A DNA stretch of 64,000 nt, taken from assembly GCF_964019385.1 (NCBI RefSeq), contig NC_088651.1, positions 2,086,368 to 2,150,367 on the forward strand, in the 5' to 3' direction. Source of the DNA: Sycon ciliatum. Lineage: Eukaryota > Porifera > Calcarea > Leucosolenida > Sycettidae. Below the pieces are notes generated by a model. That model did no database searches. It saw only the letters and a list, made by a program, of their open reading frames with translations, and was not told the DNA's origin. This document shows positions 1,901-44,244 of the stretch, piece by piece (the stretch's first letter is position 1; every line of letters starts with the position of its first letter). The translations under genes and the position numbers were made by a program.

Positions 1901-2992
1901 TTACTGGCGCCTACCGCACTTAGATCCGTTGTGGTCCTTGGACCCGAAGCGGTTGCAGACATGGGCGTACTTGCACGTGCTGAGACTGCAACGCCCAGCG
2001 TTGAAGTTCCGGCAGATCGGTTGGCCATTAGACACCGTACGGACTCCATTGAAGGCTTGCTGGTTGTTACGTTGCGGACGAAAGGGACACTGGCCGCCTC
2101 CGGGATGGATGAGGCGGCAGGACTCACATGTGGGCCTTGATCGGCTAGTCACGGACATTTGCCACAGATTTATGTCGATGACGTCAAAGCGCTTGCCTGG
2201 CCGAGCAGAAATGGCAGAGCGAAACTGGGTGTCGTACGACAGCCAAGCCTCCGGATAGTATTGCCTGTTGGCTGCAACTATGGTGGCTTGGTAGGAGAGC
2301 ATCTCCTGCAGGCGGGACGGGTTGGCAGAACACACGACGTTCATGAAGAGAGTCCATGCCTCCAGCCATGTCGGCAAGTCGTGGACGCGTCGACGAACGG
2401 GCTGCGCCGCTCCACCTTCCACCACCTCCAGAGACTGGCCGCCACTGCTGAACTGCAGCTGAAGCTGGCGTGGGGCAGAATACGAGGTCGCGATAGTATC
2501 GGGCAGGAGCTGGGTGAAATCTACAAAGTCACCCTTCAATATTTTCTCTCGTATAGTCTGGGGAACGGAGAGATTACCAGCGTTGGAAGACTCCGCCGAA
2601 GGTTGAGTTCCAGCGGATCCAGGGGCAGTAATGGTGGCCAGCATTGGAGCGATCGCCTCCGACAAGGCAACGGTGACGGCGGAATGTACTTCCTGCCGCA
2701 CAAACTGGCGCAAATCGTCATTCCTGCTCCGCTCCGGGATCTGGGGAGTCGGAGAAGCTGCTGCAGCACTCTCCAGATCCTGCTTTTGCTCCTGCTCGTG
2801 CTCCTGCCGCAAGGATGGCGTGGCCGACGGAGATCGAGGTTCCCGTGCCACCGAGCTCGACGTGTCCTGGATACTGAGCAGCAAACGGGCAAGAAGCTGG
2901 GGCTTTGTTCCGCTCGAATTCAGCCTACGGCCTTCCAGCTCGGCCCGCAAGTCCGACACGTTCATACGGCGTGCTTTAGAGGTAGACAACAT
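1901..2992 (-). CDS. Retrotransposon gag-like protein with SAP domain and zinc fingers
   Basis: Open frame of 363 residues directly upstream of the broken RT. Residues about 11-39 match the SAP DNA-binding motif (MNVSDLRAELEGRR, then SGTKPQLLARLL). The middle is Ser/Gln/Glu-rich and low in complexity. The last 40 residues hold a CCCH-type finger (CRNFNAGRC..C.YAH) followed by a knuckle-like C..F....H....C. This SAP plus C-rich tail is what gag-like ORF1 proteins of DIRS/Ngaro-type elements look like. The start is the first Met of the frame; MNVSDL, ten residues in, is a plausible alternative. The ORF is intact but its partner RT is not, so it is probably a relic. A host SAP protein is unlikely because the RT begins at the next frame shift. 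Confidence 0.75.
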   Translation of the reverse strand: MLSTSKARRMNVSDLRAELEGRRLNSSGTKPQLLARLLLSIQDTSSSVAREPRSPSATPSLRQEHEQEQKQDLESAAAASPTPQIPERSRNDDLRQFVRQEVHSAVTVALSEAIAPMLATITAPGSAGTQPSAESSNAGNLSVPQTIREKILKGDFVDFTQLLPDTIATSYSAPRQLQLQFSSGGQSLEVVEGGAAQPVRRRVHDLPTWLEAWTLFMNVVCSANPSRLQEMLSYQATIVAANRQYYPEAWLSYDTQFRSAISARPGKRFDVIDINLWQMSVTSRSRPTCESCRLIHPGGGQCPFRPQRNNQQAFNGVRTVSNGQPICRNFNAGRCSLSTCKYAHVCNRFGSKDHNGSKCGRRQ

Positions 2993-3286
2993 GTTTGTCG
3001 TGCAGTAAACGGCTGCGAGGAATCTACAAGGAGTCTGAATAATTAATTATATTCTCGGCAAACAAATTCCGGTTGCTGCTCAGTGACACTGCAAAGGAAA
3101 GCGCAAGCTAAAGTCAGCGCAGCAAGAGCCACCCAAGGCGATTTGGGTGCGCATGCGCAGCAGTTGAGTGCACGTGTAAAGCCAGCTCAGTCGCAGCTAG
3201 CTAGCATGAGATAGAGAGCAGCGCATCAGTCTTATCACTAACTAGGGTTAGCCTTTGCTAGGGTTAGCCCAAAAGCTAACCCAACA
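2993..3286. other. Leader of the gag/RT element, up to the satellite junction
   Basis: No gene. The block at 3241-3280 contains two direct copies of CTAGGGTTAGCC 17 bp apart and one inverted copy of the core (GCTAACCC). It abuts satellite sequence at TTAATCAAACTTCCC. It may be the 5' terminal repeat of the retroelement, but no second copy is present to prove it. Confidence 0.4.
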
Positions 3287-4829
3287 TGTTAATCAAACTT
3301 CCCACAGTCCCTTGACCTTCTTCATGGTGCCAGATCTCGTCAGTATTCGGTTATCACGACGGTCATGAGGAAGATTCTGAAGTGCATTTTAGAATACTGC
3401 AGAACGGTTAGACATACGGTCAGAGATTTTTCTCTCCATCACGCCAGGTCAAATGATTTCAGCAGTAAGTGCAAAATGCAAGTGAGGATTGTCTTGGCGT
3501 GCGTTGCTCGTAATATTTTATTCTTGCTCGATTTATCCCCGATTGCTTTTATTCGTATCTGCAGGCCATACAATATTCGGTTTGTACCGGTATTCGAATC
3601 ATTTTATATAGAGATTTCGATCTTTGATTAATCGGGTGGCATGCCTAGCTTGTGTATATCAACGAGGCGTTTATCGCTGGCATCACATTCAATGCATTAG
3701 TGCAGGTTCGAATCCTGCAGAACGCTTAGAAATGAATTTGTAGATTTTTTTCTCTTTCACGCCAAGTGGAATGAATCCTTTCGAAAGTAAGGACAGATGC
3801 AAGTGAAGGCAATGCTACATTTTTCTTGCTGGGATTGAGAAACGGAGGGTGGTGATACCTAGTACAATCAGTCGATCTGGGGTTTCTGCTTTATCCAGAA
3901 ACACATTGGTGCTTCCAATTTGCCGTTAAATGCTTGGCAGTCTAAGGAACGGGAACATTAAGTTTTTTTTTGCTAGTAGCCACGGGCACCTAAGGGGAAT
4001 CTGGGTAGAAAAAAAACAGGACAAATATTAACGATTCATAGCAGGAAGCGGCATCTGGCCTGGAATCACACGGAAATTATATGGTACACGGTTATTTTAG
4101 ATTGTTTTCTTTCACATTTTCATTGCTTGTCCAAAATACACAGTTAATCAAACTTCCCACAGTCCCTTGACCTTCTTCATGGTGCCAGATCTCGTCAGTA
4201 TTCGGTTATCACGACGGTTATGAGGAAGATTCTGAAGTGCATTTTAGAATACTGCAGAACGGTTAGACATACGGTCAGAGATTTTTCTCTCCATCACGCC
4301 AGGTCAAATGATTTCAGCAGTAAGTGCAAACTGCAAGTGAGGATTGTCTTGGCGTGTGTTGCTCCTAATATTTTATTCTTGCTCTATTTATCCCCGATTG
4401 CTTTTATTCGTATCTGCTGGCCATACAATATTCGGTTTGTACCGGTATTCGAACCATTTGAATAGAGATTTCGATCTTTGATTAATCGCGTGGCATCCCT
4501 AGCTTGTGTATATCAATGAGGCGTTTATCGCTGGCATCACATTCAATGCTTAAGTGCAGGTTCGAATCCTGCAGAACGCTTAGAAATGAATTTGTAGATT
4601 TTTTTCTCTTTCACGCCAAGTGGAATGAATCCTTTCGAAAGTAATGACAGATGCAAGTGAAGGCAATGCTACATTTTTCTTGCTGGGATTGAGAAACGGA
4701 GGGTGGTGATACCTAGTACAATCAGTCGATCTGGGGTTTCTGCTTTATCCAGAAACACATTGGTGCTTCCAATTTGCCGTTAAATGCCTGGCAGTCTAAA
4801 GAACGGGAACATTAAGTTTTTTTTTGCTA
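3287..4829. repeat. Satellite monomers left of unit 1 (1.8 copies)
   Basis: Two monomers with T-arms at 3702-3718 and 4556-4572. Landmarks in order are: AATCAAACTTCCCACAG, a tract rich in TTTTTCTCTCCATCACGCC, CAATATTCGGTTTGTACCGG, the tRNA-like segment, and CACGGGCACCTAAGG. Short open frames in both strands are by-products of the repeat and change between copies. Confidence 0.9.
3667..3725 (+). other. tRNA-like segment of the satellite (first of 24)
   Basis: GCAGG-TTCGAAT-CCTGC (3702-3718) is a perfect 5-bp stem with a 7-nt TTCGAAT loop, i.e. a tRNA T-arm containing the B-box consensus GGTTCGAATCC. The following AGAACGC (3719-3725) can pair with GCGTTTA (3667-3673) in acceptor-stem fashion (5 Watson-Crick pairs plus one G-T). 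Only 28 nt separate acceptor and T-arm, so D and anticodon arms are reduced or absent. The T-arm matches that common in animal tRNA-Ser genes. Best read as a degenerate tRNA or tRNA-derived promoter, not a working tRNA gene. Confidence 0.65.
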
Positions 4830-4985
4830 CTTCCTCCGTATACAAAAACTTCGTGACTTTTTTTTGAAGGCTGGGCACAGCTCTGGAATTGTTCCGTTGG
4901 ACTTGAAATAACACTCGTGGCATTGTCTAACCTGTTTACAAGCTATACACAAAGAAAAAAGCAACTCAGACGAATGTGATTGAGT

Positions 4986-5168
4986 TTATTCAGAGTCTTC
5001 GTCGCGCCTGTCATTGTCGCCTGACGACGCTGACTCCGCGTCGCCAACAGCCGCTGCTTCCGCTCCCATTTCGTTCAGATTCTTTTCAGCTGCAGTGATG
5101 ATCCGACGCGGAACTTTGGCTACGTCCTCTTCATCTCCAGAGCTGTGCACGAATCGGTGTCGACTATA
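4986..5168 (-). pseudogene. Mariner-like transposase, C-terminal piece
   Basis: Sixty codons ending at a TAA (4986-4988), beginning with YSRHRFVHSS and AKVPRRI. It continues the reading frame that breaks off at 8014 (..AGWND), so the two pieces were adjacent before the nested element split them. The Y..H....P arrangement fits the tail of mariner-like transposases (GGN-Y--PH---LP). The last 30 residues are acidic (EDSE end). The open frame runs on upstream into the nested element (to 5228) but that part is not transposase. Confidence 0.7.
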
Positions 5169-5589
5169 GGTAGGACTCAGTGAGCAGTCACGTCTCGATG
5201 ACCGATCACGATCCCCGTGACCAATCAAACAGTCACAAATCCCCGAAGAGCAGTCATAAAGTCACACACCAGTTTGAATCCCGATGACCAGTCACAAACA
5301 GCCGCGACTTTCTCTGTGAACGGTCACAGGGTCCACGTCAAAATATTACAACTCATCTGTAGGCATTCACGCGATCACTCGGATCAGCCTACTTTTTTCC
5401 TTCACAGACACAGGTTTCCGAAGTGAGCAAGAAAGATTTCGATCAACTCTCGATCTCCGCGTAGTTTACTTGTAGCTCGAGTCTGGTGTGTGTGGGCTCC
5501 TCTCCAAAACGAAGGGTGGTCGAAAATCTTGCAGGCTTCAGATAAAATCTCATTTGAGAGGACGTTCTGGCTAGTAGATTGTGCTATTC

Positions 5590-10458: not shown

Positions 10459-10491
<33 letters not shown>

Positions 10492-10632
10492 TCAGAACTA
10501 AATATTGCGACAGAGCTTTCGGCCATATTTTCAATTCATTGCATTCCCAACTCATCACAACCACGCGCTCTTCAGCCGAACCATACAGACACCAGCAAGG
10601 ACACTTCCGTTGAGAGATAATATTGCTCCACG

Positions 10633-10678
10633 CCTCTAGACAGCTGTTTCGCTCCCTGTCGGAGCTCATCAGTAGAGG
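10633..10678 (-). ncRNA. Type I hammerhead ribozyme, array copy a, unit 1
   Basis: Minus strand 5' to 3': stem I CCUCUA (10678-10673), core CUGAUGA (10672-10666), stem II GCUCC-GACAG-GGAGC (10665-10651), core GAAA (10650-10647), C-AGCU-G (10646-10641), U and C17 (10640-10639), stem I UAGAGG (10638-10633). All invariant positions are present. Stem I is 6 bp and perfect; stem II is 5 bp and perfect. Stem III is only A-U and C-G with a 4-nt palindromic AGCU loop. Predicted cut is after GUC, between 10639 and 10638. Such short stem III hammerheads usually act best as dimers, and the tandem copies would provide that. Confidence 0.95.
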
Positions 10679-11479
10679 ATAATAATGATGATAATGGAGG
10701 AATGATCATTCTTATACACCAGAAATGGCGCAAATGCGCGCTTTCCACATTATATCAATGGCATATGCAAGCTGCTAAAATGGTAAAGTGTGAGAACAGC
10801 GATAAATAATCATAGTACGCGCTCATTGGTGAAGAAACACACCACACAAGCGATGAAAACCTGACGCGGAATACTGATGCCAATGGAAAGTACATGTATG
10901 TTGTTTATTATTATGATGTCGCAATGTCCATGTATTCAGGCGAGGCGAGACTCACCGCCGAGATCCCCCAACGCGACAGGCTCGGTTGCCGTTCAGGATT
11001 CACACCGACCTGTCCGCCCGTCAACAGGATCGACAGCGGGAGGCCCCACTGATGCCGATGTTGATGCACACCGGGAAACTTGTAGTCGTGAGTGTGATAC
11101 TAACAGGTCTAGTACTAGCAACCACTGACAAACGAGAGGCCAGCTGGGGCATTCACTCCAGTCAGGGATGCTTGGTCGACGCTTCGTATCAGCAGCTCAG
11201 CTCAGTTTGATCAAAGATGTTGCAGATGTGTCTTGCTTTCCTCCTTCCTTCTTCACCGACTCGTCTTGTCACCTCTTCTTCTTGCTTCCCCGACACTTCG
11301 TGTCCACTCTGCTCTGCCACTAACGGCGCATTAAAACTTCAGAACTAAATATTGCGACAGAGCTTTCGGCCATATTTTCAATTCATTGCATTCCCAACTC
11401 ATCACAACCACGCGCTCTTCAGCCGAACCATACAGACACCAGCAAGGACACTTCCGTTGAGAGATAATATTGCTCCACG

Positions 11480-11525
11480 CCTCTAGACAGCTGTTTCGCT
11501 CCCTGTCGGAGCTCATCAGTAGAGG
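11480..11525 (-). ncRNA. Type I hammerhead ribozyme, array copy b, unit 1
   Basis: Identical over all 46 nt to the copy at 10633-10678. The cut is predicted between 11486 and 11485, so the two ribozymes would release an RNA of 847 nt. Confidence 0.95.
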
Positions 11526-12330
11526 ATGATAATGATGATAATTGATGAATGATCATTCTTATACACCAGAAATGGCGCAAGTGCGCGCTTTCCACATAAT
11601 ATCAATGGCATATGCAAGCTGCTAAAATGGTAAAGTGTGAGAACAGCGATAAATAATCATAGTACGCGCTCATTGGTGGAGAAACACACCACACAAGCGA
11701 CGAAAATCTTACTCGGAATATTGATGCCAATGGAAAGTACATGTATGTTGTTTATTATTATGATGTTGCAATGTCCATGTATGCAGGCGAGGCGAGACTC
11801 ACCGCCGAGATCCCCCAATGCGACAGGCTCGGTTGCCGTTCAGGATTCACATCTACCTGTCCGCCCGTCAACAGGATCGACAGCGGGAGGCCCCACTGAT
11901 GCCGATGTTGATGCACACCAGGAAACTTGTAGTCGTGAGTGTGATACTAACAGGTCTAGTAGCAACCACTGACAAACGAGAGGCCAGCTGGGGCATTCAC
12001 TCCAGTCAGGGATGCTTGGTCGACGCTTCGTATCAGCAGCTCAGCTCAGTTTGATCAAAGATGTTGCAGATGTGTCTTGCTTTCCTCCTTCCTTCTTCAC
12101 CGACTCGTCTTGTCATCTCTCCTTCTTTCTTCACCGACTCTTCGTGTCCACTCTGCTCTGCCACTAACGCGCATTAAAACTTCAGAACTAAATATTGCGA
12201 CAGAGCTTTCGGCCATATTTTCAATTCATTGCATTCCCAACTCATCACAACCACGCGCTCTTCAGCCGAACCATACAGACACCAGCAAGGACACTTCCGT
12301 TGAGAGATATTGATATTGATATTATGTGGA

Positions 12331-12385: not shown

Positions 12386-12796
12386 TAGATGTATAGCAGG
12401 GAGTCATATTATGTGAACGACTCCCTGCTGTATGGAGAGATTTTCTGGAAAGAAATACGAAGTAGGAAGACGAGTAAATGTAATCAGAATGGATGTTAGT
12501 TAACGTCAGTATAATAATAAGAAGAAGAAGAACGCCCGTGATCGGCAGAGTCAGCGCCGGTCCCAGGAAACGTCAGGACAGACATCCCGTCGACTCCAGA
12601 ACGCCCGTGATCGGCAGAGTCAGCGCCGGTTCCATAGCTATGCAGAAGACGTTACTTCAGTATCTCATTGAAACGTTTTTGCAATACAATGATGTAGCTA
12701 ATCAAAGGAAAAAGCATTTCCATCAGTTCTAACAACATGCACGATGAGCTAGGCTACAAAGCATAGCGCAGGGCCCTGAGCTTCCAAGCTCTCTCG

Positions 12797-13267
12797 TTCT
12801 TGCTCGATTTATCCCCGATTGCTTTTATTCGTATCTGCAGGCCATACAATATTCGGTTTGTACCGGTTTTCGAACCGTTTAAATAGAGATTTCGATCTTT
12901 GATTAATCGCATGGCATGCCTAGCTTGTGTATATCAATGAGGCGTTTATCGCTGGCATCACATTCAATGCATAAGTGCAGGTTCGAATCCTGCAGAACGC
13001 TTAGAAATGAATTTGTAGATTTTTTTCTCTTTCATGCCAAGTGGAATGAATCCTTTCCAAAGTAAGGACAGATGCAAGTGAAGGCAATGGTACATTTTTC
13101 TTGCTGGGATTGAGAAACGGAGGGTGGTGATACCTAGTACAATCAGTCGATCTGGGGTTTCTGCTTTATCCAGAAACACATTGGTGCTTCCAATTTGCCG
13201 TTAAATGCTTGGCAGTCTAATGAACGGGAACATTAAGTTTGTTTTGCTAGTAGCCACGGGCACCTAA
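12797..13267. repeat. Satellite monomer piece with T-arm, unit 1
   Basis: Continues the monomer broken by the composite (TTCTTGCTCGATTTATCC), with T-arm 12977-12993. It ends at CACCTAA, where the Harbinger-like element begins. Confidence 0.85.
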
Positions 13268-14106
13268 GGCCTCGGTCACACTACGGCAAAAATGCTGCGT
13301 CAGCGTCAGAATCATTAGCTTTTCCATGGCAACTGACGCAACGCGGGAAGTTTGAGCGTCAGACGCTGCTGCGTCTGACGTGGGGAAATCGGCTGCGTTG
13401 CCGCTGATGGGAGTGACGCTTGGCGGAAAAACAGTGTCTTTCAAGTAAAATTAGTTTCAAGACACTTTGCTTGAGTTGAGCAGTTATTCGACATTCGTCT
13501 CTTCAAGGTTTGTTTTGTTCCCTCTTTTTGTTCGAGATGAGTCCGTGGACCTACGAGGCCGAGGCTGCTCTGCTCCGAACCTGGCGGAAGAGCGAGGCAT
13601 TTTCTGAGAAGAAAATGATGTCGAGAAAGGACCAGTTGTTTGAGTGGGTCATCGGCCAACTGGAGCCTGTTGACTTGTGAGTGTTGTGTTGTCGTCAAGA
13701 GCCCCAAAAAGGACAACCAGCATGACGAAGTCAGGAGAAACACAGCTGCGATGCGGACTTTTCTTGCCTGATCCATGACACTACAACTGAAAATGGCTTC
13801 AAATTGGGAAAGAAGCAACAACGATCGTGCACGCGTGGACCTTTCGTCTTCTTGTAATCAAAAATCAATGACAAATTTGAAAACTTTGTCCGACAATTTT
13901 TTTGGTATGATAAGCAAAAGGCCGGTTTCCGTGGAAATCCGTGTCGTCATTGAGTTTCCCTGGTGATTTTGTGACGTAGCCAAATGCGTCAGGCCGCGGC
14001 AGTCATGAGCTGCAAAAAACAAAACACTGTGTGACCCCGCGTCTGCGTCAAGTGCTGCGGCTTGACGCTGCGTCCAGCTTCAAACTGCCGTAGTGTGACC
14101 GAGGCC
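13268..14106. mobile_element. Harbinger-like non-autonomous element, unit 1 (839 bp)
   Basis: Perfect 21-bp terminal inverted repeats beginning GGCCTCGGTCACACTACGGC (13268-13288 and 14086-14106), flanked by TAA on both sides (13265-13267, 14107-14109). Removing the element and one TAA restores the monomer sequence CACCTAAGGGGAATC. A 3-bp TAA duplication and GG-starting termini fit PIF/Harbinger. Subterminal regions repeat GCGTCAG/CTGACGC motifs, as expected for transposase binding sites. No transposase; one short Myb/SANT-like frame inside. Confidence 0.85.
13537..13680 (+). pseudogene. Myb/SANT-like exon remnant in Harbinger-like element
   Basis: Forty-seven codons starting MSPWTYEAEAALLRTWRKSE. 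The W..E...LL..W pattern followed by a basic stretch and LFEWVIGQL resembles the Myb/SANT (trihelix) DNA-binding protein that partners Harbinger transposases. The frame stops at 13678 within CTTGTGAGTG, which also reads as a 5' splice site, so this could be a first exon whose partner was lost. Identical frames at 25911-26054 and 45396-45539. Too short to be functional alone; assignment is by pattern only. Confidence 0.5.
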
Positions 14107-17100
14107 TAAGGGGAATCTGGGTAGCAAAAACAAAAAGGACAAATATTAACGATTCATAGCAGGAAGCGGCATCTGGCCTGGAATCACACGGAAATTATAT
14201 GGTACACGGTTATTTTAGATTATTTTCTTTCACATTTTCATTGCTTGTCCAAAATACACAGTTAATCAAACTTCCCACAGTCTCTTGAACTTCTTCATGG
14301 TGCCAGATCTCGTCAGTATTCGGTTCTCACGACGGTTATGAGGAAGATGCTGAAGTGCATTTTAGAATACTGCAGAACGGTTAGACATACGGTCAGAGAT
14401 TTTTCTCTCCATCACGCCAGGTCAAATGATTTCAGCAGTAAGTGCAAAATGCAAGTAACGAACAATTGTCTTGGCATGTGTTGCTCATAATATTTTATTT
14501 TTGCTTGATTTATCTCCAACTGCTTTTATACGTATCTGCAGGCCAAACAATATTCGGTTTGTACCGGTATTCGAACCATTTAAATAGAGATTTCGATCTT
14601 TGATTAATCGCGTGGCATGCCTAGCTTGTGTATATCAACGAGGCGTTTATCGCTGGCATCACATTCAATGCATAAGTGCAGGTTCGAATCCTGCAGAACG
14701 CTTAGAAATGAATTTGTAGATTTTTTTCTCTTTCACGCCAAGTGGAATGAAACCTTTCGAAAGTAAAGACAGATGCAAGTGAAGGCAAAGGTACATTTTT
14801 CTTGCTGGGATTAAGAAACGGAGGGTGGTGATATCTAGTACAATGAGTCGATCTGGGGTTTCTGCTTTATCCAGAAACACATTGGTGCTTCCAATTTGCC
14901 GTTAAATGCTTGGCAGTCTAATGAACGGGAACATTAAGTTTTGTTTGCTAGTAGCCACGGGCACCTAAGGGGAATCTGGGTAGCAAAAACAACGTGGACA
15001 ATTATTAACGATTCATAGCAGGAAGCGGCATCTTGCCTGGAATCACACGGAAATTATATGGTACACGGTTATTTTAGATTATTTTCTTTCACATTTTCAT
15101 TGCTTGTCCAAAATACACAGTTAATCCAACTTTCAACAGTCCCTTGAACTTCTTCATGGTGCCAGATCTCGTCAGTATTCGGTTCTCACGACGGTTATGA
15201 GGAAGATGCTTAAGTGCATTTTAGAATACTGCAGAACGGTTAGACATACGGTCAGAGATTTTTCTCTCCATCACGCCAGCTCAAATGATTTCAGCAGTAA
15301 GTGCAAAATGCAAGTAACGAACAATTGTCTTGGCATGTGTTGCTCGTAATCTTTTATTTTTGCTTGATTTATCCCCTATTGCTTTTATACGTATCTGCAG
15401 GCCAAACAATATTCGGTTTGTACCGGTATTCGAACCATTTAAATAGAGATTTCGATCTTTGATTAATCGCGTGGCATGCCTAGCTTGTGTATATCAACGA
15501 GGCGGTTATCGCTGGCATCACATTCAATGCATAAGTGCAGGTTCGAATCCTGCAGAACGCTTAGAAATGAATTTGTAGATTTTTTTCTCTTTCACGCCAA
15601 GTGGAATGAAACCTTTCGAAAGTAAAGACAGATGCAAGTGAAGGCAAAGGTACATTTTTCTTGCTGGGATTAAGAAACGGAGGGTGGTGATATCTAGTAC
15701 AATCAGTCGATCTGGGGTTTCTGCTTTATCCAGAAACACATTGGTGCTTCCAATTTGCCGTTAAATGCTTGGCAGTCTAATGAACGGGAACATTAAGTTT
15801 TGTTTGCTAGTAGCCACGGGCACCTAAGGGGAATCTGGGTAGCAAAAACAAAGAGGACAAATATTAACGATTCATAGCAGGAAGCGGCATCTTGCCTGGA
15901 ATCACACGGAAATTATATGGTACACGGTTATTTTAGATTATTTTCTTTCACATTTTCATTGCTTGTCCAAAATACACAGTTAATCAAACTTCCCACAGTC
16001 CCTTGACCTTCTTCATGGTGCCAGATCTCGTCAGTATTCGGTTCTCACGACGGTTATGAGGAAGATGCTTAAGTGCATTTTAGAATACTGCAGAACGGTT
16101 AGACATACGGTCAGAGATTTTTCTCTCCATCACGCCAGGTCAAATGATTTCAGCAGTAAATGCAAAATGCAAGTAACGAACAATTGTCTTGGCATGTGTT
16201 GCTCGTAATATTTTATTTTTGCTTGATTTATCCCCAATTGCTTTTATACGTATCTGCAGGCCAACCAATATTCGGTTTGTACCGGTATTCGAACCATTTA
16301 AATAGAGATTTCGATCTTTGATTAATCGCGTGGCATGCCTAGCTTTTGTATATCAATGAGGCGTTTATCGCTGGCATCACATTCAATGCATAAGTGCAGG
16401 TTCGAATCCTGCAAAACGCTTAGAAATGAATTTGTAGATTTTTTTCTCTTTCACGCCAAGTGGAATGAATCCTTTCGAAAGTAAGGACAGATGCAAGTGA
16501 AGGCAATGGTACATTTTTCTTGCTGGGATTAAGAAACGGAGGGTGGTGATACCTAGTACAATCAGTCGATCTGGGGTTTCTGCTTTATCCAGAAACACAT
16601 TGGTGCTTCCAATTTGCCGTTAAATGCTTGGCAGTCTAATGAACGGGAACATTAAGTTTTTTTGCTAGTAGCCACGGGCACCTAAGGGGAATCTGGGTAG
16701 CAAAAACAAAGAGGACAAATATTAACGATTCATAGCAGGAAGCGGCATCTGGCCTGGAATCACACGGAAATTATATGGTACACGGTTATTTTAGATTATT
16801 TTCTTTCACATTATCATTGTTTGTCCAAAATACACAGTTAATCAAACTTCCCACAGTCCCTTGACCTTCTTCATGGTGCCAGATCTCGTCAGTATTCGGT
16901 TCTCACGACGGTTATGAGGAAGATGCTGAAGTGCATTTTAGAATACTGCAGAACGGTTAGACATACGGTCAGAGATTTTTCTCTCCATCACGCCAGGTCA
17001 AATGATTTCAGCAGTAAGTGCAAACTGCAAGTGAGGATTGTCTTGGCGTGTGTTGCTCGTAATATTTTATTCTTGCTCTATTTATCCCCGATTGCTTTTA

Positions 17101-17529
17101 TTCGTATCTGCTGGCCATACAATATTCGGTTTGTACCGGTATTCGAACCATTTGAATAGAGATTTCGATCTTTGATTAATCGCGTGGCATCCCTAGCTTG
17201 TGTATATCAATGAGGCGTTTATCGCTGGCATCACATTCAATGCATCAGTGCAGGTTCGAATCCTGCAGAACGCTTAGAAATGAATTTGTAGATTTTTTTC
17301 TCTTTCACGCCAAGTGGAATGAATCCTTTCCAAAGTACATGTAAGGACAGATGCAAGTGAAGGCAATGGTACATTTTTCTTGCTGGGATTGAGAAACGGA
17401 GGGTGGTGATACCTAGTACAATCAGTCGATCTGGGGTTTCTGCTTTATCCAGAAACACATTGGTGCTTCCAATTTGCCGTTAAATGCCTGGCAGTCTAAA
17501 GAACGGGAACATCAAGTTTTTTTTTGCTA
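14107..17529. repeat. Satellite monomers, unit 1 (four T-arms)
   Basis: T-arms at 14678, 15537, 16396 and 17250 (spacing 859, 859, 854). The copy at 16396 has CTGCAAAACGC instead of CTGCAGAACGC, and this variant recurs at 28769 and 48255, showing inheritance by whole-unit duplication. Confidence 0.9.
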
Positions 17530-22835: not shown

Positions 22836-22871
<36 letters not shown>

Positions 22872-23012
22872 TCAGAACTAAATATTGCGACAGAGCTTTC
22901 GGCCATATTTTCAATTCATTGCATTCCCAACTCATCACAACCACGCGCTCTTCAGCCGAACCATACAGACACCAGCAAGGACACTTCCGTTGAGAGATAA
23001 TATTGCTCCACG

Positions 23013-23058
23013 CCTCTAGACAGCTGTTTCGCTCCCTGTCGGAGCTCATCAGTAGAGG
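23013..23058 (-). ncRNA. Type I hammerhead ribozyme, copy a, unit 2
   Basis: Identical to 10633-10678; predicted cut between 23019 and 23018. Confidence 0.95.
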
Positions 23059-23858
23059 ATAATAATGATGATAATGGAGGAATGATCATTCTTATACACC
23101 AGAAATGGCGCAAATGCGCGCTTTCCACATATATCAATGGCATATGCAAGCTGCTAAAATGGTAAAGTGTGAGAACAGCGATAAATAATCATAGTACGCG
23201 CTCATTGGTGAAGAAACACACCACACAAGCGATGAAAACCTGACGCGGAATACTGATGCCAATGGAAAGTACATGTATGTTGTTTATTATTATGATGTCG
23301 CAATGTCCATGTATTCAGGCGAGGTGAGACTCACCGCCGAGATCCCCCAACGCGACAGGCTCGGTTGCCGTTCAGGATTCACACCGACCTGTCCGCCCGT
23401 CAACAGGATCGACAGCGGGAGGCCCCACTGATGCCGATGTTGATGCACACCGGGAAACTTGTAGTCGTGAGTGTGATACTAACAGGTCTAGTACTAGCAA
23501 CCACTGACAAACGAGAGGCCAGCTGGGGCATTCACTCCAGTCAGGGATGCTTGGTCGACGCTTCGTATCAGCAGCTCAGCTCAGTTTGATCAAAGATGTT
23601 GCAGATGTGTCTTGCTTTCCTCCTTCCTTCTTCACCGACTCGTCTTGTCACCTCTTCTTCTTGCTTCCCCGACACTTCGTGTCCACTCTGCTCTGCCACT
23701 AACGGCGCATTAAAACTTCAGAACTAAATATTGCGACAGAGCTTTCGGCCATATTTTCAATTCATTGCATTCCCAACTCATCACAACCACGCGCTCTTCA
23801 GCCGAACCATACAGACACCAGCAAGGACACTTCCGTTGAGAGATAATATTGCTCCACG

Positions 23859-23904
23859 CCTCTAGACAGCTGTTTCGCTCCCTGTCGGAGCTCATCAGTA
23901 GAGG
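23859..23904 (-). ncRNA. Type I hammerhead ribozyme, copy b, unit 2
   Basis: Identical core and stems; predicted cut between 23865 and 23864. Confidence 0.95.
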
Positions 23905-24710
23905 ATGATAATGATGATAATTGATGAATGATCATTCTTATACACCAGAAATGGCGCAAGTGCGCGCTTTCCACATAATATCAATGGCATATGCAAGCTG
24001 CTAAAATGGTAAAGTGTGAGAACAGCGATAAATAATCATAGTACGCGCTCATTGGTGGAGAAACACACCACACAAGCGACGAAAATCTTACTCGGAATAT
24101 TGATGCCAATGGAAAGTACATGTATGTTGTTTATTATTATGATGTTGCAATGTCCATGTATGCAGGCGAGGCGAGACTCACCGCCGAGATCCCCCAATGC
24201 GACAGGCTCGGTTGCCGTTCAGGATTCACATCTACCTGTCCGCCCGTCAACAGGATCGACAGCGGGAGGCCCCACTGATGCCGATGTTGATGCACACCAG
24301 GAAACTTGTAGTCGTGAGTGTGATACTAACAGGTCTAGTAGCAACCACTGACAAACGAGAGGCCAGCTGGGGCATTCACTCCAGTCAGGGATGCTTGGTC
24401 GACGCTTCGTATCAGCAGCTCAGCTCAGTTTGATCAAAGATGTTGCAGATGTGTCTTGCTTTCCTCCTTCCTTCTTCACCGACTCGTCTTGTCATCTCTC
24501 CTTCTTTCTTCACCGACTCTTCGTGTCCACTCTGCTCTGCCACTAACGGCGCATTAAAACTTCAGAACTAAATATTGCGACAGAGCTTTCGGCCATATTT
24601 TCAATTCATTGCATTCCCAACTCATCACAACCACGCGCTCTTCAGCCGAACCATACAGACACCAGCAAGGACACTTCCGTTGAGAGATATTGATATTGAT
24701 ATTATGTGGA

Positions 24711-25170: not shown

Positions 25171-25641
25171 TTCTTGCTCGATTTATCCCCGATTGCTTTT
25201 ATTCGTATCTGCAGGCCATACAATATTCGGTTTGTACCGGTTTTCGAACCGTTTAAATAGAGATTTCGATCTTTGATTAATCGCATGGCATGCCTAGCTT
25301 GTGTATATCAATGAGGCGTTTATCGCTGGCATCACATTCAATGCATAAGTGCAGGTTCGAATCCTGCAGAACGCTTAGAAATGAATTTGTAGATTTTTTT
25401 CTCTTTCATGCCAAGTGGAATGAATCCTTTCCAAAGTAAGGACAGATGCAAGTGAAGGCAATGGTACATTTTTCTTGCTGGGATTGAGAAACGGAGGGTG
25501 GTGATACCTAGTACAATCAGTCGATCTGGGGTTTCTGCTTTATCCAGAAACACATTGGTGCTTCCAATTTGCCGTTAAATGCTTGGCAGTCTAATGAACG
25601 GGAACATTAAGTTTGTTTTGCTAGTAGCCACGGGCACCTAA
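25171..25641. repeat. Satellite monomer piece, unit 2
   Basis: T-arm 25351-25367; ends at the TAA flank of the Harbinger-like element. Confidence 0.85.
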
Positions 25642-30351: not shown

Positions 30352-30591
30352 TACAGAATGGCTCAGACCACGCAGTGGTCGCCAGCTATTCTGGATTATA
30401 TGAAGAATGTGATGTCGAACATATCAACGTGTTTGGCCTAATTCTCTAACCTGACAGCTAGTTTGTAGTGTATTTTACATGTTTTATGTGAATTTTGTGT
30501 TTTATTTTGTGCGCATGCCCTTTGGCATCTTGGAAAGCGCACATTTTTTTGTTGTCAAAACTGTCCGTTCCACACTTGCTCTTCGGCCTTT
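30352..30591. repeat. DIRS left terminal region (tip plus 171-bp inverted repeat)
   Basis: Tip 30352-30420 starts TACAGAATGGCTCAGACC; the inverted repeat is 30421-30591 (ATATCAACGTGTTTGGCC to CTTCGGCCTTT). The opposite tip is shorter and different, as in other DIRS elements. Confidence 0.9.
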
Positions 30592-30653
30592 GATAGCGAG
30601 CCTCTAACAAGTGCATTGTCCCAATATCAACGTAGACGGGTGGGAGGGAAGGG

Positions 30654-38494: not shown

Positions 38495-40088
38495 CCGTAG
38501 CTATGCAGAAGACGTTACTTCACTAACGTCTGGCGCTAGCCAGGGTCCACACAGCTTTAATTCCCGTAGCTATGCAGAAGACGTTACTTCAGTAACGTCT
38601 GGCGCTAGCCAGGGTCCACACAGCTTTAATTTGGTGTTTGTTTGTTTGTTTGTTTGTTTGTTTGTTTGTTTGTTTGTTTGTTTGTTTGTTTGTTTGTGTC
38701 ACGCCTGGCGCTATCCCGTATCTGTCCCGTACTGTACCGTACCAGCAAAGACAGCTGGCCACAATATTTTTGTTTGTTTGTGCCATCGACATGCCTGGCG
38801 CTATCCCTTACCTGTCCCGTACCATCAAGAGTACGGTACCATCAACAGAATGAGTATATATGCGAAGTGTATCGGGGGAATGCATTCAGTGCAGTAACAT
38901 TTTGTGTGGATTTGTGTGCGAGGCCGAGATCCCACTAGCTGGCTGGCTGGGCCGCCTGTCGACCAGCCCGGGAATCGCATATAGGCCGATAGCATAATAA
39001 TTATAACGTATATACAGTCATGTAGATGTATAGCAGGGTGTCATGTTCTGTAAACGACTCCCTGCTGTATGGGGAGATTTTCTGGAAAGAAATACGAAGT
39101 AGGGAGACGAGTAAATGCAATCAGAATGGATGTTAGTTGCCGTCAGTATAATAATAATAAGAAGAAGAACGCCCGTGATCGGCAGAGTCAGCGCCGGTCC
39201 CAGGAAACGTCAGGACAGACATCCCGTTGACTCCAGAGCGCCCGTGATCGGCAGAGTCAGCGCCGGTCCCATAGCTATGCAGAAGACGTGACTTCAGTAT
39301 CTCAGTGAAACGTTTTTGCAATACAATGATGTAGCTAATCAAAGGAAAAAGCATTTCCATCAGTTCTAACAACATACACGATAAGCTAGGCAACAAAGCA
39401 TAGCGCAGGGCCCTGAGCTTCCAAGCTCTCTCGTTTGGTGTTTGTTTGTTTGTTTGTTTGTTTGTTTGTTTGTTTGTTTGTGTCACGCCTGGCGCTATCC
39501 CGTATCTATCCCGTACTGTACCGTACCAGCAAAGACAGCTGGCCACAATATTTTTGTTTGTTGTTTGTGCCATCGACATGCCTGGCGCTATCCCGTACCT
39601 GTCCCGTACCATCAAGAGTACGGTACCATCAAGAGAATCAGTACTAGTATATATGCGAAGTGTATGGGGGAATGCATTCAGTCCAGTAACATTTTGTGTG
39701 GATTTGTGTGCGAGGCCAAGATCCCACTAGCTGGCTGGCTGGGCCGCCTGTCGACCAGCCCGGGAATCGCATGTAGGCGGAAAGCATAATAATTATAACG
39801 TATATACAGTCATGTCTTTGTCTTTGTTTCTCTCCTTATTATTCAGTTCGCCGTGGTTGGCTACCACCCGACTTCTCATATATATTGGCAGTCTTCTGAC
39901 GAGCCAGGAGATGTTGAATTAATAATAATAATAATAATAATAATAATTCAGAACTAAATATTGCGACAGAGCTTTCGGCCATATTTTCAATTCATTGCAT
40001 TCCCAACTCATCACAACCACGCGCTCTTCAGCCGAACCATACAGACACCAGCAAGGACACTTCCGTTGAGAGATAATATTGCTCCACG

Positions 40089-40134
40089 CCTCTAGACAGC
40101 TGTTTCGCTCCCTGTCGGAGCTCATCAGTAGAGG
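40089..40134 (-). ncRNA. Type I hammerhead ribozyme, copy a, unit 3
   Basis: Identical to 10633-10678; predicted cut between 40095 and 40094. Confidence 0.95.
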
Positions 40135-40934
40135 ATAATAATGATGATAATGGAGGAATGATCATTCTTATACACCAGAAATGGCGCAAATGCGCGCTTT
40201 CCACATATATCAATGGCATATGCAAGCTGCTAAAATGGTAAAGTGTGAGAACAGCGATAAATAATCATAGTACGCGCTCATTGGTGAAGAAACACACCAC
40301 ACAAGCGATGAAAACCTGACGCGGAATACTGATGCCAATGGAAAGTACATGTATGTTGTTTATTATTATGATGTCGCAATGTCCATGTATTCAGGCGAGG
40401 CGAGACTCACCGCCGAGATCCCCCAACGCGACAGGCTCGGTTGCCGTTCAGGATTCACACCGACCTGTCCGCCCGTCAACAGGATCGACAGCGGGAGGCC
40501 CCACTGATGCCGATGTTGATGCACACCGGGAAACTTGTAGTCGTGAGTGTGATACTAACAGGTCTAGTACTAGCAACCACTGACAAACGAGAGGCCAGCT
40601 GGGGCATTCACTCCAGTCAGGGATGCTTGGTCGACGCTTCGTATCAGCAGCTCAGCTCAGTTTGATCAAAGATGTTGCAGATGTGTCTTGCTTTCCTCCT
40701 TCCTTCTTCACCGACTCGTCTTGTCACCTCTTCTTCTTGCTTCCCCGACACTTCGTGTCCACTCTGCTCTGCCACTAACGGCGCATTAAAACTTCAGAAC
40801 TAAATATTGCGACAGAGCTTTCGGCCATATTTTCAATTCATTGCATTCCCAACTCATCACAACCACGCGCTCTTCAGCCGAACCATACAGACACCAGCAA
40901 GGACACTTCCGTTGAGAGATAATATTGCTCCACG

Positions 40935-40980
40935 CCTCTAGACAGCTGTTTCGCTCCCTGTCGGAGCTCATCAGTAGAGG
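40935..40980 (-). ncRNA. Type I hammerhead ribozyme, copy b, unit 3
   Basis: Identical core and stems; predicted cut between 40941 and 40940. Confidence 0.95.
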
Positions 40981-41958
40981 ATGATAATGATGATAATTGA
41001 TGAATGATCATTCTTATACACCAGAAATGGCGCAAGTGCGCGCTTTCCACATAATATCAATGGCATATGCAAGCTGCTAAAATGGTAAAGTGTGAGAACA
41101 GCGATAAATAATCATAGTACGCGCTCATTGGTGGAGAAACACACCACACAAGCGACGAAAATCTTACTCGGAATATTGATGCCAATGGAAAGTACATGTA
41201 TGTTGTTTATTATTATGATGTTGCAATGTCCATGTATGCAGGCGAGGCGAGACTCACCGCCGAGATCCCCCAATGCGACAGGCTCGGTTGCCGTTCAGGA
41301 TTCACATCTACCTGTCCGCCCGTCAACAGGATCGACAGCGGGAGGCCCCACTGATGCCGATGTTGATGCACACCAGGAAACTTGTAGTCGTGAGTGTGAT
41401 ACTAACAGGTCTAGTAGCAACCACTGACAAACGAGAGGCCAGCTGGGGCATTCACTCCAGTCAGGGATGCTTGGTCGACGCTTCGTATCAGCAGCTCAGC
41501 TCAGTTTGATCAAAGATGTTGCAGATGTGTCTTGCTTTCCTCCTTCCTTCTTCACCGACTCGTCTTGTCATCTCTCCTTCTTTCTTCACCGACTCTTCGT
41601 GTCCACTCTGCTCTGCCACTAACGGCGCATTAAAACTTCAGAACTAAATATTGCGACAGAGCTTTCGGCCATATTTTCAATTCATTGCATTCCCAACTCA
41701 TCACAACCACGCGCTCTTCAGCCGAACCATACAGACACCAGCAAGGACACTTCCGTTGAGAGATATTGATATTGATATTATGTGGAAATAATAATAATAA
41801 TAATAATAATTTTAGAATTGCGATCAACAGAACGAGCTGAACCGACATTTTCACAAAGGCTTTTATTGTATTCAAAAAAACGAGTGTATACGAAGGCAGT
41901 GAAGAACATGTAAGAAAGAAAAAATGTGATATGGAAGAAATGATGAACAAAAAATTGT

Positions 41959-41996
41959 ACTTCGAACTAGTTTTCGCACAACACTCCTCAGGAAGC
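41959..41996 (-). ncRNA. Hammerhead ribozyme in the inverted PLE arm
   Basis: Exact complement of 44002-44039, so it would be made from the opposite strand. Confidence 0.7.
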
Positions 41997-42412
41997 TACG
42001 TTGTACTAATGAAAAACAATCCAGAAAGATACTGATAAAGAGAAATGGAGTGAGAAGAAACAACACCTATGAAAATGATAATCCTAGCACTAAGGTAATA
42101 ACAGGAAAAACTGCGAAAGCACTTAACGAACTTGTAAGGACTACTAGTATACTGTGACACAAGATATGACAACATGGCCAGCCAGAGCCAAACAGACAGA
42201 ACAAGTTGCTACTAAAACAATTTCAAACGAATAATGCTGTCCTTCTGGACACACAGATTAGGCTTATGAATACGTTGACAAACGGCTTCTAACACACTCA
42301 ACTGCAACTTATAACCATGACGAGCACGGCACAAAACAGAAAAAGAAGAATCAGAATAAACCTTACAGCAATCAGGACAGGTCTTTCTTGGTGCTCTCAA
42401 CACCCTTCACCC

Positions 42413-42524
42413 TTCCCTCCGCTTCACATGTGAGCACGAGCAGTCAAGCAAGTTACCCTTCCTCGACGTTCCCTCCGCTTCACATGTGAGCACGAGCAGT
42501 CAAGCAAGTTACCCTTCCTCGACG
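42413..42524 (+). repeat. 56-bp tandem duplication inside the PLE RT
   Basis: TTCCCTCCGCTTCACATGTG...CGACG occurs at 42413-42468 and 42469-42524. Each encodes the conserved FTCEHEQSSKLPFLDV, but 56 is not a multiple of 3, so the copies are in different frames. The frame of the second copy meets a TGA at 42431. Confidence 0.92.
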
Positions 42525-43783
42525 TACTTGTTGAGAAAACCGAATTTGGTAGCGTAACATCGGTGTATCGTAAACCGACATTCACCGGACAATACATTTC
42601 CTATGACTCGTACTGTTCATCTAATTATAAAGTCAACTTAGTAAAGAATCTCGTGGATCGCGCCAAACGGATCTGTTCACCTTGTAAACTCAGTGGTGAG
42701 CTCGAATTTCTCCGTTCAGTTTTCACCAAAAACGGATACCCAGGCGACATGTTGGCAAAACTATTGTCTACAGCCCCCACGCCGAAACATGAATTGATAG
42801 GGCCTGCTCGTTGTCCTGTCTTTTTGTGCTTACCATGGAAGGGCAAGAAGTCTGACAATTTGAGTCGTGAAGTTCGTGCGATCATCAAACAAACCTACTA
42901 TGCGGTACACTTCATACCCGTCTACACAACGATGCGTTCGTTCACGGTGTTGAAGGACGTCCTACCAACCCATCATTTAAGTCATGTAATCTACAACTTT
43001 GAATGCCGGAATTGTGCTAGCCGGTATGTTGGTAGGACTGTTCAGCACCTGAGCGAACGCATCAAGCAACACACTCCTTTACACATTATCCCACGTAGCG
43101 CACAACTGGAGCGTCCCACGCGGGGAAGACCCCGTAAACAACCACTACCTCCGCCAACACAGGACCTAGCGTCTCACTCGACAAGTCCACCATTGGCTCC
43201 CGTGGCCATGACCAAGTCACTCCCTCCACCAGCGGAGGTGGATGTGGCTTTGGCGACGCCACGTGTGTTGCATGCAGACACGTTTGCATCAGCATCGCTT
43301 GCTGCATCACCGGCAGAGACGACAACAATACCTACCTCAATATCAACGAGACCCAGAAGAACCACTGCTAATTACACCATGACCTATTTCAGTACGGAAG
43401 TACCGAGCCAACGGAATACACAACAGGAACGTGAGACGAGGGATGGGAGGAGACGGGCCCTGATTGCTCCGAGGCAGGAAGTCGTTGAGGAGGATTCGGC
43501 CAGTGAGTCCAGTGATTCCGGTGAGTGTGAGAGCGAGAATGATCGTGTGAGTAAAAGTGGGTGCGAGCGTGTGTTTTCTAGTAGGAAGTCATCAGTGTAT
43601 AAGCATCTTGCATCTCGTCCTGATTGCTGTAAGGTTTATTCTGATTCTTCTTTTTCTGTTTTGTGCCGTGCTCGTCATGGTTATAAGTTGCAGTTGAGTG
43701 TGTTAGAAGCCGTTTGTCAACGTATTCATAAGCCTAATCTGTGTGTCCAGAAGGACAGCATTATTCGTTTGAAATTGTTTTAG
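42434..43783 (+). CDS. PLE polyprotein, C-terminal part: RT end and GIY-YIG endonuclease
   Basis: Open from 42434; recognisable protein starts at 42479 with FTCEHEQSSKLPFLDVLVEK, then SVYRKPTFTGQY, both hallmark motifs of the PLE RT C-terminal region. Counting from the Met at 42563, a GIY-YIG endonuclease starts near residue 144: YNFECRNCASRYVGRT, ERIKQH. Its C-terminal half is at 343-406: YKHLASRPDCC, SVLEAVCQRIHKPNLCVQK, with catalytic Glu382 in VLEA. Between the halves lies about 170 residues of Pro-rich, basic then acidic sequence with an AT-hook-like TRGRPRKQP (about 186-194) and DSASESSDSGECESEND. The YIDD-type RT core is lost upstream, so this copy cannot copy itself. ORF ends at TAG 43781-43783. 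Confidence 0.88.
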   Translation, partial: ARAVKQVTLPRRSLRFTCEHEQSSKLPFLDVLVEKTEFGSVTSVYRKPTFTGQYISYDSYCSSNYKVNLVKNLVDRAKRICSPCKLSGELEFLRSVFTKNGYPGDMLAKLLSTAPTPKHELIGPARCPVFLCLPWKGKKSDNLSREVRAIIKQTYYAVHFIPVYTTMRSFTVLKDVLPTHHLSHVIYNFECRNCASRYVGRTVQHLSERIKQHTPLHIIPRSAQLERPTRGRPRKQPLPPPTQDLASHSTSPPLAPVAMTKSLPPPAEVDVALATPRVLHADTFASASLAASPAETTTIPTSISTRPRRTTANYTMTYFSTEVPSQRNTQQERETRDGRRRALIAPRQEVVEEDSASESSDSGECESENDRVSKSGCERVFSSRKSSVYKHLASRPDCCKVYSDSSFSVLCRARHGYKLQLSVLEAVCQRIHKPNLCVQKDSIIRLKLF

Positions 43784-44001
43784 TAGCAACTTGTTCTGTC
43801 TGTTTGGCTCTGGCTGGCCATGTTGTCATATCTTGTGTCACAGTATACTAGTAGTCCTTACAAGTTCGTTAAGTGCTTTCGCAGTTTTTCCTGTTATTAC
43901 CTTAGTGCTAGGATTATCATTTTCATAGGTGTTGTTTCTTCTCACTCCATTAACTCTCTTTATCAGTATCTTTCTGGATTGTTTTTCATTAGTACAACGT
44001 A

Positions 44002-44039
44002 GCTTCCTGAGGAGTGTTGTGCGAAAACTAGTTCGAAGT
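44002..44039 (+). ncRNA. Hammerhead ribozyme in the PLE 3' region
   Basis: Plus strand: stem I GCUUC (44002-44006), core CUGAGGA (44007-44013), stem II GUG-UUG-UGC (44014-44022), GAAA (44023-44026), A-CUAG-UU (44027-44033), C17 (44034), stem I GAAGU (44035-44039). The core fits CUGANGA/GAAA; stem I is 4 bp plus G-U; stem II is weak (one G-C and two G-U); stem III is two A-U pairs with a palindromic CUAG loop. PLEs are known to carry hammerheads of this short stem III type in their terminal repeats. The ORF stop is 220 bp upstream. Confidence 0.75.
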
Positions 44040-44213
44040 ACAATTTTTTGTTCATCATTTCTTCCATATCACATTTTTTCTTTCTTACATGTTCTTCACT
44101 GCCTTCGTATACACTCGTTTTTTTGAATACAATAAAAGCCTTTGTGAAAATGTCGGTTCAGCTCGTTCTGTTGATCGCAATTCTAAAACTATTGTCGCCT
44201 CGACGCCTATTTA

Positions 44214-44244
<31 letters not shown>

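What the first reader, a model, noticed from the sequence alone, without database searches (positions are those of the whole stretch)
10633..11525. Perfect hammerhead ribozymes in an 847-bp tandem non-coding repeat (retrozyme-like element)
Two identical 46-nt minus-strand hammerheads, exactly 847 bp apart, have every invariant core position, a perfect 6-bp stem I, a perfect 5-bp stem II and a GUC cut site. Stem III is only 2 bp with an AGCU loop, the short type I form known from Penelope elements and animal retrozymes. The repeat has no conserved protein frame. Six copies in three units are all identical in the ribozyme. A transcript of the array would self-cut into 847-nt RNAs that could circularise. 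The length is larger than the few hundred nt usually described for animal retrozymes, so this may be a new family.
Basis: partly seen in the sequence, partly recalled or inferred. Interest (0 to 1): 0.92.

Follow-up and report, generated by a model that had tools for sequence, protein, structure and literature searches.

The report
Ribozyme-bearing satellite of Penelope retrotransposons
This is a young, non-coding jumping element of an animal-type genome that carries a hammerhead self-cutting RNA motif and is inserted with the fingerprint of Penelope retrotransposons, which bears on the open question of which enzyme copies such ribozyme elements in animals.

Summary
In detail: six exact copies of a complete type I hammerhead lie on the minus strand, two per ~847-nt tandem array in three near-identical 12-kb units; 100 shuffles give none. 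The six are not independent: arrays of different units are 99.8-99.9% identical, the two repeats of one array only 96.9%.

The unnamed 538-Mb genome holds 551 matches to the core. In 42 ribozyme-holding loci (41 fetched, plus the window's first array), 3' ends fall in two groups, ~105 and ~147 nt past the cut, and 21 of 21 head-to-head inserts pair one short with one long end. Thirteen of 40 have 7-12-bp target duplications, against 1 of 1560 mismatched flank pairs. This is the published signature of Penelope-like elements (PLEs; PMC11167929, PMC3846280), which are abundant here.

Best reading: a PLE-mobilised, non-autonomous, pLTR-like element; retrozyme-like in design, but too long and not highly self-paired. 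In these loci insertions run through the cut, so cut linear RNA is not the usual template. The helper PLE, cleavage and circular RNA are unproven.

The parts
10485..12318 (-). Array of about 2.17 repeats in unit 1. On the minus strand it starts near phase 14 (12318) and ends at the long 3' end (10485), near (AAT)n on both sides. Phase 1 = first nt after the ribozyme cut.
10633..10678 (-). Type I hammerhead ribozyme, copy 1; predicted cut between 10639 and 10638
   Evidence: exact; HH9 E=0.0012, below gathering
11480..11525 (-). Type I hammerhead ribozyme, copy 2; predicted cut between 11486 and 11485
   Evidence: (HH9 E=0.0092, below gathering)
10639..11485 (-). One full 847-nt unit (phase 1 at 11485 to phase 847 at 10639), GC 48.4%, no long open frame, not more structured than shuffles
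10534..10638 (-). Tail up to the short reverse-transcription start (about phase 105), inferred from insertion ends
10485..10533 (-). Optional tail extension to the long reverse-transcription start (about phase 147-154)
22865..24698 (-). Same array in duplicated unit 2 (hammerheads 23013-23058 and 23859-23904)
39941..41774 (-). Same array in duplicated unit 3 (hammerheads 40089-40134 and 40935-40980)
41810..44215 (+). Apparently 5'-truncated Penelope-like element in the (AAT)n next to the unit 3 array; inverted ends (577-bp alignment, 99.3%); left end short, right end with the extra tail (44189-44215), ends read by eye
42434..43783 (+). Open frame of that element; a 218-aa part of it has 150 scored matches (3226 first-look candidates), among them frames of about 1085 aa. 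Naming it PLE rests on recognised motifs and layout: no Pfam match at E<=0.001
44002..44039 (+). The PLE's own, different short hammerhead (CUGAGGA core; found with loose settings only), 3' side
41959..41996 (-). Inverted copy of the PLE's hammerhead, left end

Best explanation
A non-autonomous retroelement that a Penelope-like reverse transcriptase/GIY-YIG endonuclease moves in trans. Its 847-851-nt unit behaves like a PLE pseudo-LTR without the coding body: upstream part, type I hammerhead, then a ~150-nt region in which copying starts. Model: RNA containing at least one uncut (or resealed) ribozyme junction is bound by a PLE protein; the endonuclease nicks both strands of a target, often (AAT/ATT)n; copying starts inside the RNA at ~105 nt past the cut on one strand and ~147 nt past it on the other; cDNAs run through the ribozyme and stop at scattered places; they are joined head to head (or one alone is joined to the flank), leaving a 7-12-bp duplication. 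Reading round a circular or multimeric RNA gives tandem units. Shown by sequence in the loci examined: the ends, the pairing rule, the duplications, truncation, read-through of the cut site, tandem units, abundant PLEs. Inferred: the PLE protein as the engine, the RNA form, and ribozyme activity.
For: Two discrete 3' ends: 33 short (phase 57-121, mode 105) and 30 long (139-158) in 63 arms of 42 loci; 21 of 21 head-to-head inserts are one short plus one long; singles are 12 short and 9 long. Duplications >=7 bp, microsatellites excluded, in 13 of 40 loci vs 1 of 1560 mismatched flank pairs. Flanks with AAT/ATT runs at several loci, e.g. L010, L018, L023, L050, L051 and the window (by eye). The window PLE shows the same short/long asymmetry and a hammerhead upstream of its 3' end; in another PLE group of the genome (L060, L061, L063, L064) short and long ends lie 36 nt apart (by eye). 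Literature: PLE copying starts internally at two adjacent sites, prefers ATT, and extends both strands (PMC11167929); inverted pLTRs with an optional 31-bp tail on one of them, 9-bp duplication, and pLTRs able to move foreign DNA in trans (PMC3846280). L041's insertion site is present empty in a related sequence, L037, with a 4-bp duplication (compared by eye).
Against: No PLE with a sequence-similar tail or the same ribozyme was found in the 20 fetched PLE 3' regions and the window PLE; this is a small survey. Among the 150 scored matches (of 998) to the frame over the ribozyme none has a long frame. The tail extension is ~42 nt here, ~27 and ~36 nt in the PLEs seen. 27 of 40 loci show no clear duplication >=7 bp (4 of these are microsatellite). 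Head-to-head arms of one locus differ by 0-5.8%, so they are not always copies of one RNA. No RNA or protein data. All loci were chosen because they hold the ribozyme.
Confidence: 0.8

Rival explanations
1. A long animal retrozyme in the strict sense: array transcripts are cut by the ribozyme, units are ligated into 847-nt circles, and the circles are copied (by a PLE or LINE) into new tandem arrays.
For: Type I hammerhead, tandem units, no coding frame, GC 48.4%. In 7 of 8 arrays tandem sisters are more alike than copies of different loci: 0 of 686 positions in L010, 0 of 276 in L028, vs a between-locus mean of 3.08%. A circle gives insertions through the cut site of more than one unit; 12 of 63 arms exceed 847 nt. 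Eight ribozymes at exactly 851-bp spacing at C2:45079417-45085374.
Against: Unit twice the reported size; RNA not more structured than shuffles, z=+1.86. The window's two repeats differ by 3.1%, as much as copies of different loci. Ribozyme core not more conserved than its neighbour. Linear multimers explain the same data.
Confidence: 0.3
2. A deletion derivative of one particular autonomous PLE whose reading frame starts inside the ribozyme: the ATG in CUGAUGA opens a frame of about 60 codons that ends just past the long start site.
For: Frame from phase 817 runs through both start sites to a TAA near phase 155; in the anole PLE the frame starts at stem II of the hammerhead and copying starts inside the frame (PMC11167929).
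Against: No long frame continuing it among 150 of 998 candidates scored; codon positions vary equally; in the window PLE the ATG that I take for the frame start lies about 110 nt downstream of its hammerhead (by eye).
Confidence: 0.3
3. An ordinary satellite DNA that spreads by unequal exchange, with a fossil ribozyme.
For: The window arrays were multiplied with the whole 12-kb unit; long regular arrays exist elsewhere.
Against: Hundreds of matches spread over many contigs, target-site duplications, fixed 3' ends, variable 5' ends.
Confidence: 0.04

Closest known systems
Penelope-like elements (Penelope/Poseidon type), pseudo-LTRs
   Same: 5'-truncated insertions, tandem and head-to-head inverted copies, optional tail on one of two inverted ends, duplications of similar length (8-10 bp in the rotifer passages, 7-12 here), AAT/ATT targets, type I hammerhead upstream of the copying start (PMC3846280, PMC11167929)
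   Different: No reverse transcriptase or endonuclease frame; hammerhead has a 2-bp stem III with tetraloop and 5-bp stem II, where a review describes PLE hammerheads as minimal (PMC7761336); no sequence match to the PLEs examined
Metazoan non-LTR retrozymes (coral, mussel, axolotl)
   Same: Type I hammerhead with short stem III, tandem repeats, non-coding, GC below 50%, duplications longer than 4 bp, coexistence with PLEs (PMC7229834)
   Different: 847-851 bp instead of 150-450 bp; monomer not highly self-paired; most examined arms are shorter than one unit (51 of 63); circular RNA not tested
Plant LTR retrozymes
   Same: Similar circle size range (600-800 nt reported in PMC7229834) and hammerhead-bounded units
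   Different: Plant elements have type III hammerheads, LTRs, 4-bp duplications and probably Gypsy-type mobilisation (PMC7229834, PMC7761336); here type I and PLE-like ends
Schistosoma W-elements and other schistosome repeats with hammerheads
   Same: Repetitive, putatively mobile, hammerhead-bearing (PMC8490949, passages; Sj-alpha seen there only as a reference title)
   Different: No PLE-type ends were described in the passages seen

Membership tests
Hammerhead ribozyme, type I | Invariant core, three stems, cut after GUC | tested here: met
   0 in 100 shuffles
Hammerhead ribozyme, type I | Covariance-model match at curated score | tested here: inconclusive
   none at gathering; HH9 best at E=0.0012, 26.2 of 52 bits
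Hammerhead ribozyme, type I | Self-cleavage | not testable with these tools
   needs in vitro transcription
Metazoan non-LTR retrozyme | Type I hammerhead in tandem repeats | tested here: met
Metazoan non-LTR retrozyme | Unit about 150-450 bp (RNA 170-400 nt) | tested here: not met
   847-851 bp; range from PMC7229834
Metazoan non-LTR retrozyme | Stable, highly self-paired RNA | tested here: not met
   -254.8 vs -267.4 +/- 6.7 kcal/mol for 60 shuffles, linear fold
Metazoan non-LTR retrozyme | GC below 50%, no protein frame | tested here: met
   GC 48.4%
Metazoan non-LTR retrozyme | Target duplications longer than 4 bp | tested here: met
   13 of 40 loci >=7 bp
Metazoan non-LTR retrozyme | Linear and circular unit-length RNA in tissues | not testable with these tools
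   no RNA data held
Penelope-like element (autonomous) | Frame with RT and GIY-YIG domains | tested here: not met
   no long frame in the unit or joined to its 5' region (150 of 998 scored)
PLE-mobilised non-autonomous element | Two adjacent internal copying starts (tail signature) | tested here: met
   33 short and 30 long ends, gap between 121 and 139
PLE-mobilised non-autonomous element | Head-to-head inverted ends, tail on one | tested here: met
   21 of 21 head-to-head inserts
PLE-mobilised non-autonomous element | 5' truncation, target duplications, AT-rich targets | tested here: met
   duplications of 7-12 bp in 13 of 40; AT-rich targets judged by eye
PLE-mobilised non-autonomous element | Sequence shared with an autonomous PLE of the same genome | tested here: inconclusive
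   no match in 20 fetched PLE 3' regions and the window PLE (the one strong hit was the array's own end inside the slice); not a complete PLE catalogue

The most novel reading that the evidence does not exclude
Animal hammerhead retroelements of this kind are satellites of Penelope elements, and the PLE integration complex obeys a strict rule in the genome: one target strand is primed at the short start and the other at the long start of the RNA, always on RNA whose ribozyme junction is intact or resealed. The ribozyme would then not make the template end, but process multimers or act after copying.
Probability: 0.45. Interest if true: 0.78.

Novelty: new variant of a known kind. Interest (0 to 1): 0.62.

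Why it matters
A review says that metazoan retrozymes show no motif from which their helper retrotransposon can be deduced, and PLEs are named as candidates only (PMC7761336, PMC7229834). Here a hammerhead element carries the PLE integration fingerprint in dozens of young insertions, so the PLE-helper idea becomes directly testable in one genome. That a tail may sit on one of two inverted pLTRs was known (PMC3846280); the strict short-plus-long pairing (21 of 21) goes further and constrains how PLEs prime both target strands, since the in vitro study saw no difference in start site between strands (PMC11167929). The lack of stops at the ribozyme cut argues that cut linear RNA is not the usual template, in line with the in vitro result that ribozyme mutants still insert (same paper).

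Tried and rejected
Rejected: protein-coding remnant under selection (equal variation at codon positions 41/43/43; no long frame). Excess conservation of the ribozyme or tail: at first suggested by identities to the window copy, but divergence from the majority letter is about 1.7% in body and tail alike; the lower values of the ribozyme (0.28%) and of phases 1-50 (0.68%) are biased by how loci were chosen; the comparison 383/551 vs 442/610 exact shows no excess. A longer ancestral form with extra sequence near phase 733-739: the extra pieces of L018, L040, L052 and L053 are unrelated to each other. Partner PLE by tail similarity: none in the small survey. Counting the segment just past the cut (437) was dropped as a measure, because 851-bp copies seem to have 4 extra nt there (distance of ribozyme and tail matches). 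The short fold comparison of tails gave no shared hairpin. Papers: PMC11167929, parts 1 and 2 of 4; PMC7229834, parts 1-3 of 6 plus passages; PMC7761336, PMC3846280, PMC8490949, PMC8969392 and PMC11722881, passages only; Cervera and de la Pena 2014 not held, and Lunse 2017 seen only as a reference title.

Rows dropped before counts: L011 (segmental duplicate of L012), an old diverged copy in L027, segments under 85% identity and fragments without a 3' end; L011, L057 and the window for duplications; L011, the window copy, and matches under 88% or 60 nt for divergence; L011 and matches under 90% or 60 nt for sister comparison. L024 has a tiny second arm that the search did not call and is counted as single. 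Of the 8 loci cut only L001 was used, since the others lie inside L009 and L010 (L005 except for its last bases). The 42 loci all hold the ribozyme and are not a random sample.

Full report
What is there. The minus strand of the window carries six exact copies of a 46-nt type I hammerhead, two in each of three arrays. All core positions are present; stem I has 6 bp, stem II 5 bp, stem III 2 bp with an AGCU loop. A strict structural scan finds six in the window and none in 100 dinucleotide shuffles. Rfam gives no match at its curated score; at relaxed threshold, in a search of the first array only, Hammerhead_HH9 is best, with E 0.0012 and 0.0092. ACAGCUGU, which forms stem III and its loop, is an 8-nt palindrome, so a dimer of two ribozymes with a longer shared stem III is possible; this follows from the sequence and was not tested. 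Folding by energy alone pairs CUG with CAG instead of forming the hammerhead core, so activity must be shown at the bench.

The three arrays are not independent. They lie in a ~12.4-kb segment present in near-identical units. Arrays of different units are 99.84-99.89% identical, whereas the two repeats inside the first array are 96.86% identical. Spacing is 847 in unit 1 and 846 in units 2 and 3.

Anatomy. I number the unit from the first base after the cut (phase 1 = 11485, phase 847 = 10639, minus strand). The first array runs from 12318 (phase 14) to 10485 (about phase 154), that is 1834 bases or about 2.17 units, with AAT repeats on both sides. GC is 48.4%. The unit is slightly less structured than 60 dinucleotide shuffles (-254.8 against -267.4, sd 6.7, linear folding). 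There is no long frame; a 73-codon open stretch crosses the ribozyme, but codon positions vary equally and no frame longer than 202 aa contains it among the 150 scored of 998 candidates.

The family in its genome. The window lies in a 538-Mb assembly of 313 contigs. The 34-nt ribozyme core has 551 matches at up to 3 mismatches and none for the reversed control; 383 are exact. A 34-mer in the tail has 610 matches, 442 exact. Thus the ribozyme (69.5% exact) is not more conserved than its neighbour (72.5%). Copies in the loci examined differ from the majority letters by about 1.7%: the family is young. Some copies have 851-bp spacing, with eight ribozymes in a row at C2:45079417-45085374.

How copies are inserted. 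I fetched 20 loci of 9.9 kb, 6 of about 4 kb and 15 of 1151 bases around ribozyme matches, and used one more locus cut (L001). After dropping L011, a duplicate of L012, 41 fetched loci and the window's first array (42 in all) remain. They contain 63 arms with a 3' end. These ends form two groups without overlap: 33 at phase 57-121 (mode 105) and 30 at phase 139-158. Twenty-one loci are head-to-head inserts with two outward 3' ends, and all 21 have one short and one long end. Of the 21 single-ended loci 12 are short and 9 long. In 13 of 40 loci the flanks repeat 7-12 bp, microsatellites excluded and offsets of up to 3 allowed, against 1 of 1560 mismatched pairs of flanks. Several inserts sit in AAT/ATT runs (by eye). 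One insert, L041, lies in a repeat whose uninterrupted form occurs in L037 (by eye; 4-bp duplication).

The ribozyme and the template. The 5' ends of arms are scattered; 0 of 63 lie within 5 nt of the cut, the nearest being phase 6 (L047) and 14 (window). Because loci were picked for holding a ribozyme, the fair sample is the second arm of the 21 head-to-head inserts: in 11 both arms run through the cut, and in 10 the second arm stops earlier, at phases 6 to 123. If ribozyme-cut linear RNA were the usual template, arms would stop at phase 1. Genome-wide, 551 ribozyme against 610 tail matches point the same way, but roughly, since tandem copies and mismatch limits enter. So the template is mostly RNA with an uncut or resealed junction. 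Twelve of 63 arms are longer than one unit. In 7 of 8 arrays sister units are more alike (0-2.04% in the overlaps compared) than copies of different loci (mean 3.08%, 2968 pairs), but the window's own pair is not, at 3.12%. The two arms of head-to-head inserts differ by 0-5.8%. This fits a circle or a multimer and does not decide between them.

Why Penelope. Published PLE features are: reverse transcription that starts inside the RNA at two adjacent sites, giving the tail; cleavage of ATT; extension of both strands; insertion independent of ribozyme cleavage in vitro (PMC11167929, parts 1 and 2 of 4 read). In a rotifer: inverted pLTRs with a 31-bp tail on one of them, a 9-bp duplication, and pLTRs that move foreign DNA in trans (PMC3846280, passages). 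The positional features recur here. The genome is rich in PLEs: a part of the frame beside the third array has 3226 first-look candidates, 150 scored, with frames near 1085 aa. That apparently truncated PLE, about 41810-44215, has inverted ends, a different hammerhead, a short left end and a long right end. Further PLE groups turn up with the GIY-YIG profile (148 matches at E<=0.01 among 150 scored of 944). Of 11 such 3' regions fetched, 8 contain a hammerhead-like core, and in one group (L060, L061, L063, L064) short and long ends lie 36 nt apart, by eye. Naming the window frame a PLE rests on its layout and recognised motifs, since Pfam gave no match at E<=0.001.

What speaks against. None of the 20 fetched PLE 3' regions, nor the window PLE, shares sequence with the unit, and its tail extension (~42 nt) is longer than theirs (~27 and ~36 nt). 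The helper may be a PLE that I did not see. Nothing is known here about RNA, protein or activity.

Known or new. Animal retrozymes are reported as 150-450-bp repeats with 170-400-nt, highly self-paired circular RNAs (PMC7229834). This element is twice that size and not highly self-paired, so I do not file it as a strict member. It works like a retrozyme and is built like a PLE pseudo-LTR without the coding body. A review states that metazoan retrozymes show no motif from which the helper could be deduced (PMC7761336); PLEs are named as candidates there and in PMC7229834, PMC8969392 and PMC11722881. My seven literature searches, whose lists were mostly capped, showed no paper that, by title and abstract start, demonstrates PLE ends on a non-coding hammerhead element; only the open library was searched, and most listed papers were not read.

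Noticed in passing
window 5905-53276: A ~12.4-kb segment is present in near-identical (99.1-99.8%) direct units, later ones enlarged by further insertions; the hammerhead arrays were multiplied with it.
   Followed up: partly
window 30352-35052: A 4.7-kb stretch present only between units 2 and 3 with a reverse transcriptase frame (Pfam RVT_1, E 4.9e-26) and a tyrosine-recombinase match below the curated cut-off (E 2.3e-4), which looks like a DIRS-type retroelement.
   Followed up: no
window 3288-5589, 12797-17529, 25171-29902, 44656-49388, 52860-59434: An unrelated satellite of about 860 bp in tandem, copies about 91-97% identical.
   Followed up: no
window 1007-3046: Minus-strand frames with RVT_1 (E 7.7e-14) and a SAP domain (E 9.4e-8), another retroelement fragment.
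   Followed up: no
L018 4140-5383, L040 2236-3271, L052 634-822, L053 213-822: Four unrelated inserts, of 189 to 1244 bp and with inverted-looking ends, sit at nearly the same place of the repeat (about phase 733-739), an apparent insertion hot spot.
   Followed up: partly
G000:C1:78524528-78539334 (3' region: L059): A PLE group with 902-aa frames in head-to-tail rows spaced 2935 bp; its 3' region holds a short hammerhead-like core.
   Followed up: partly
G000:C2:45079417-45086565: A long array of eight hammerheads at exactly 851-bp spacing followed by one inverted copy, a sister subfamily.
   Followed up: no
window 12392-12432: A hairpin weakly like mir-929 (E 0.071, 22.7 of 56 bits), probably just an inverted repeat.
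   Followed up: no
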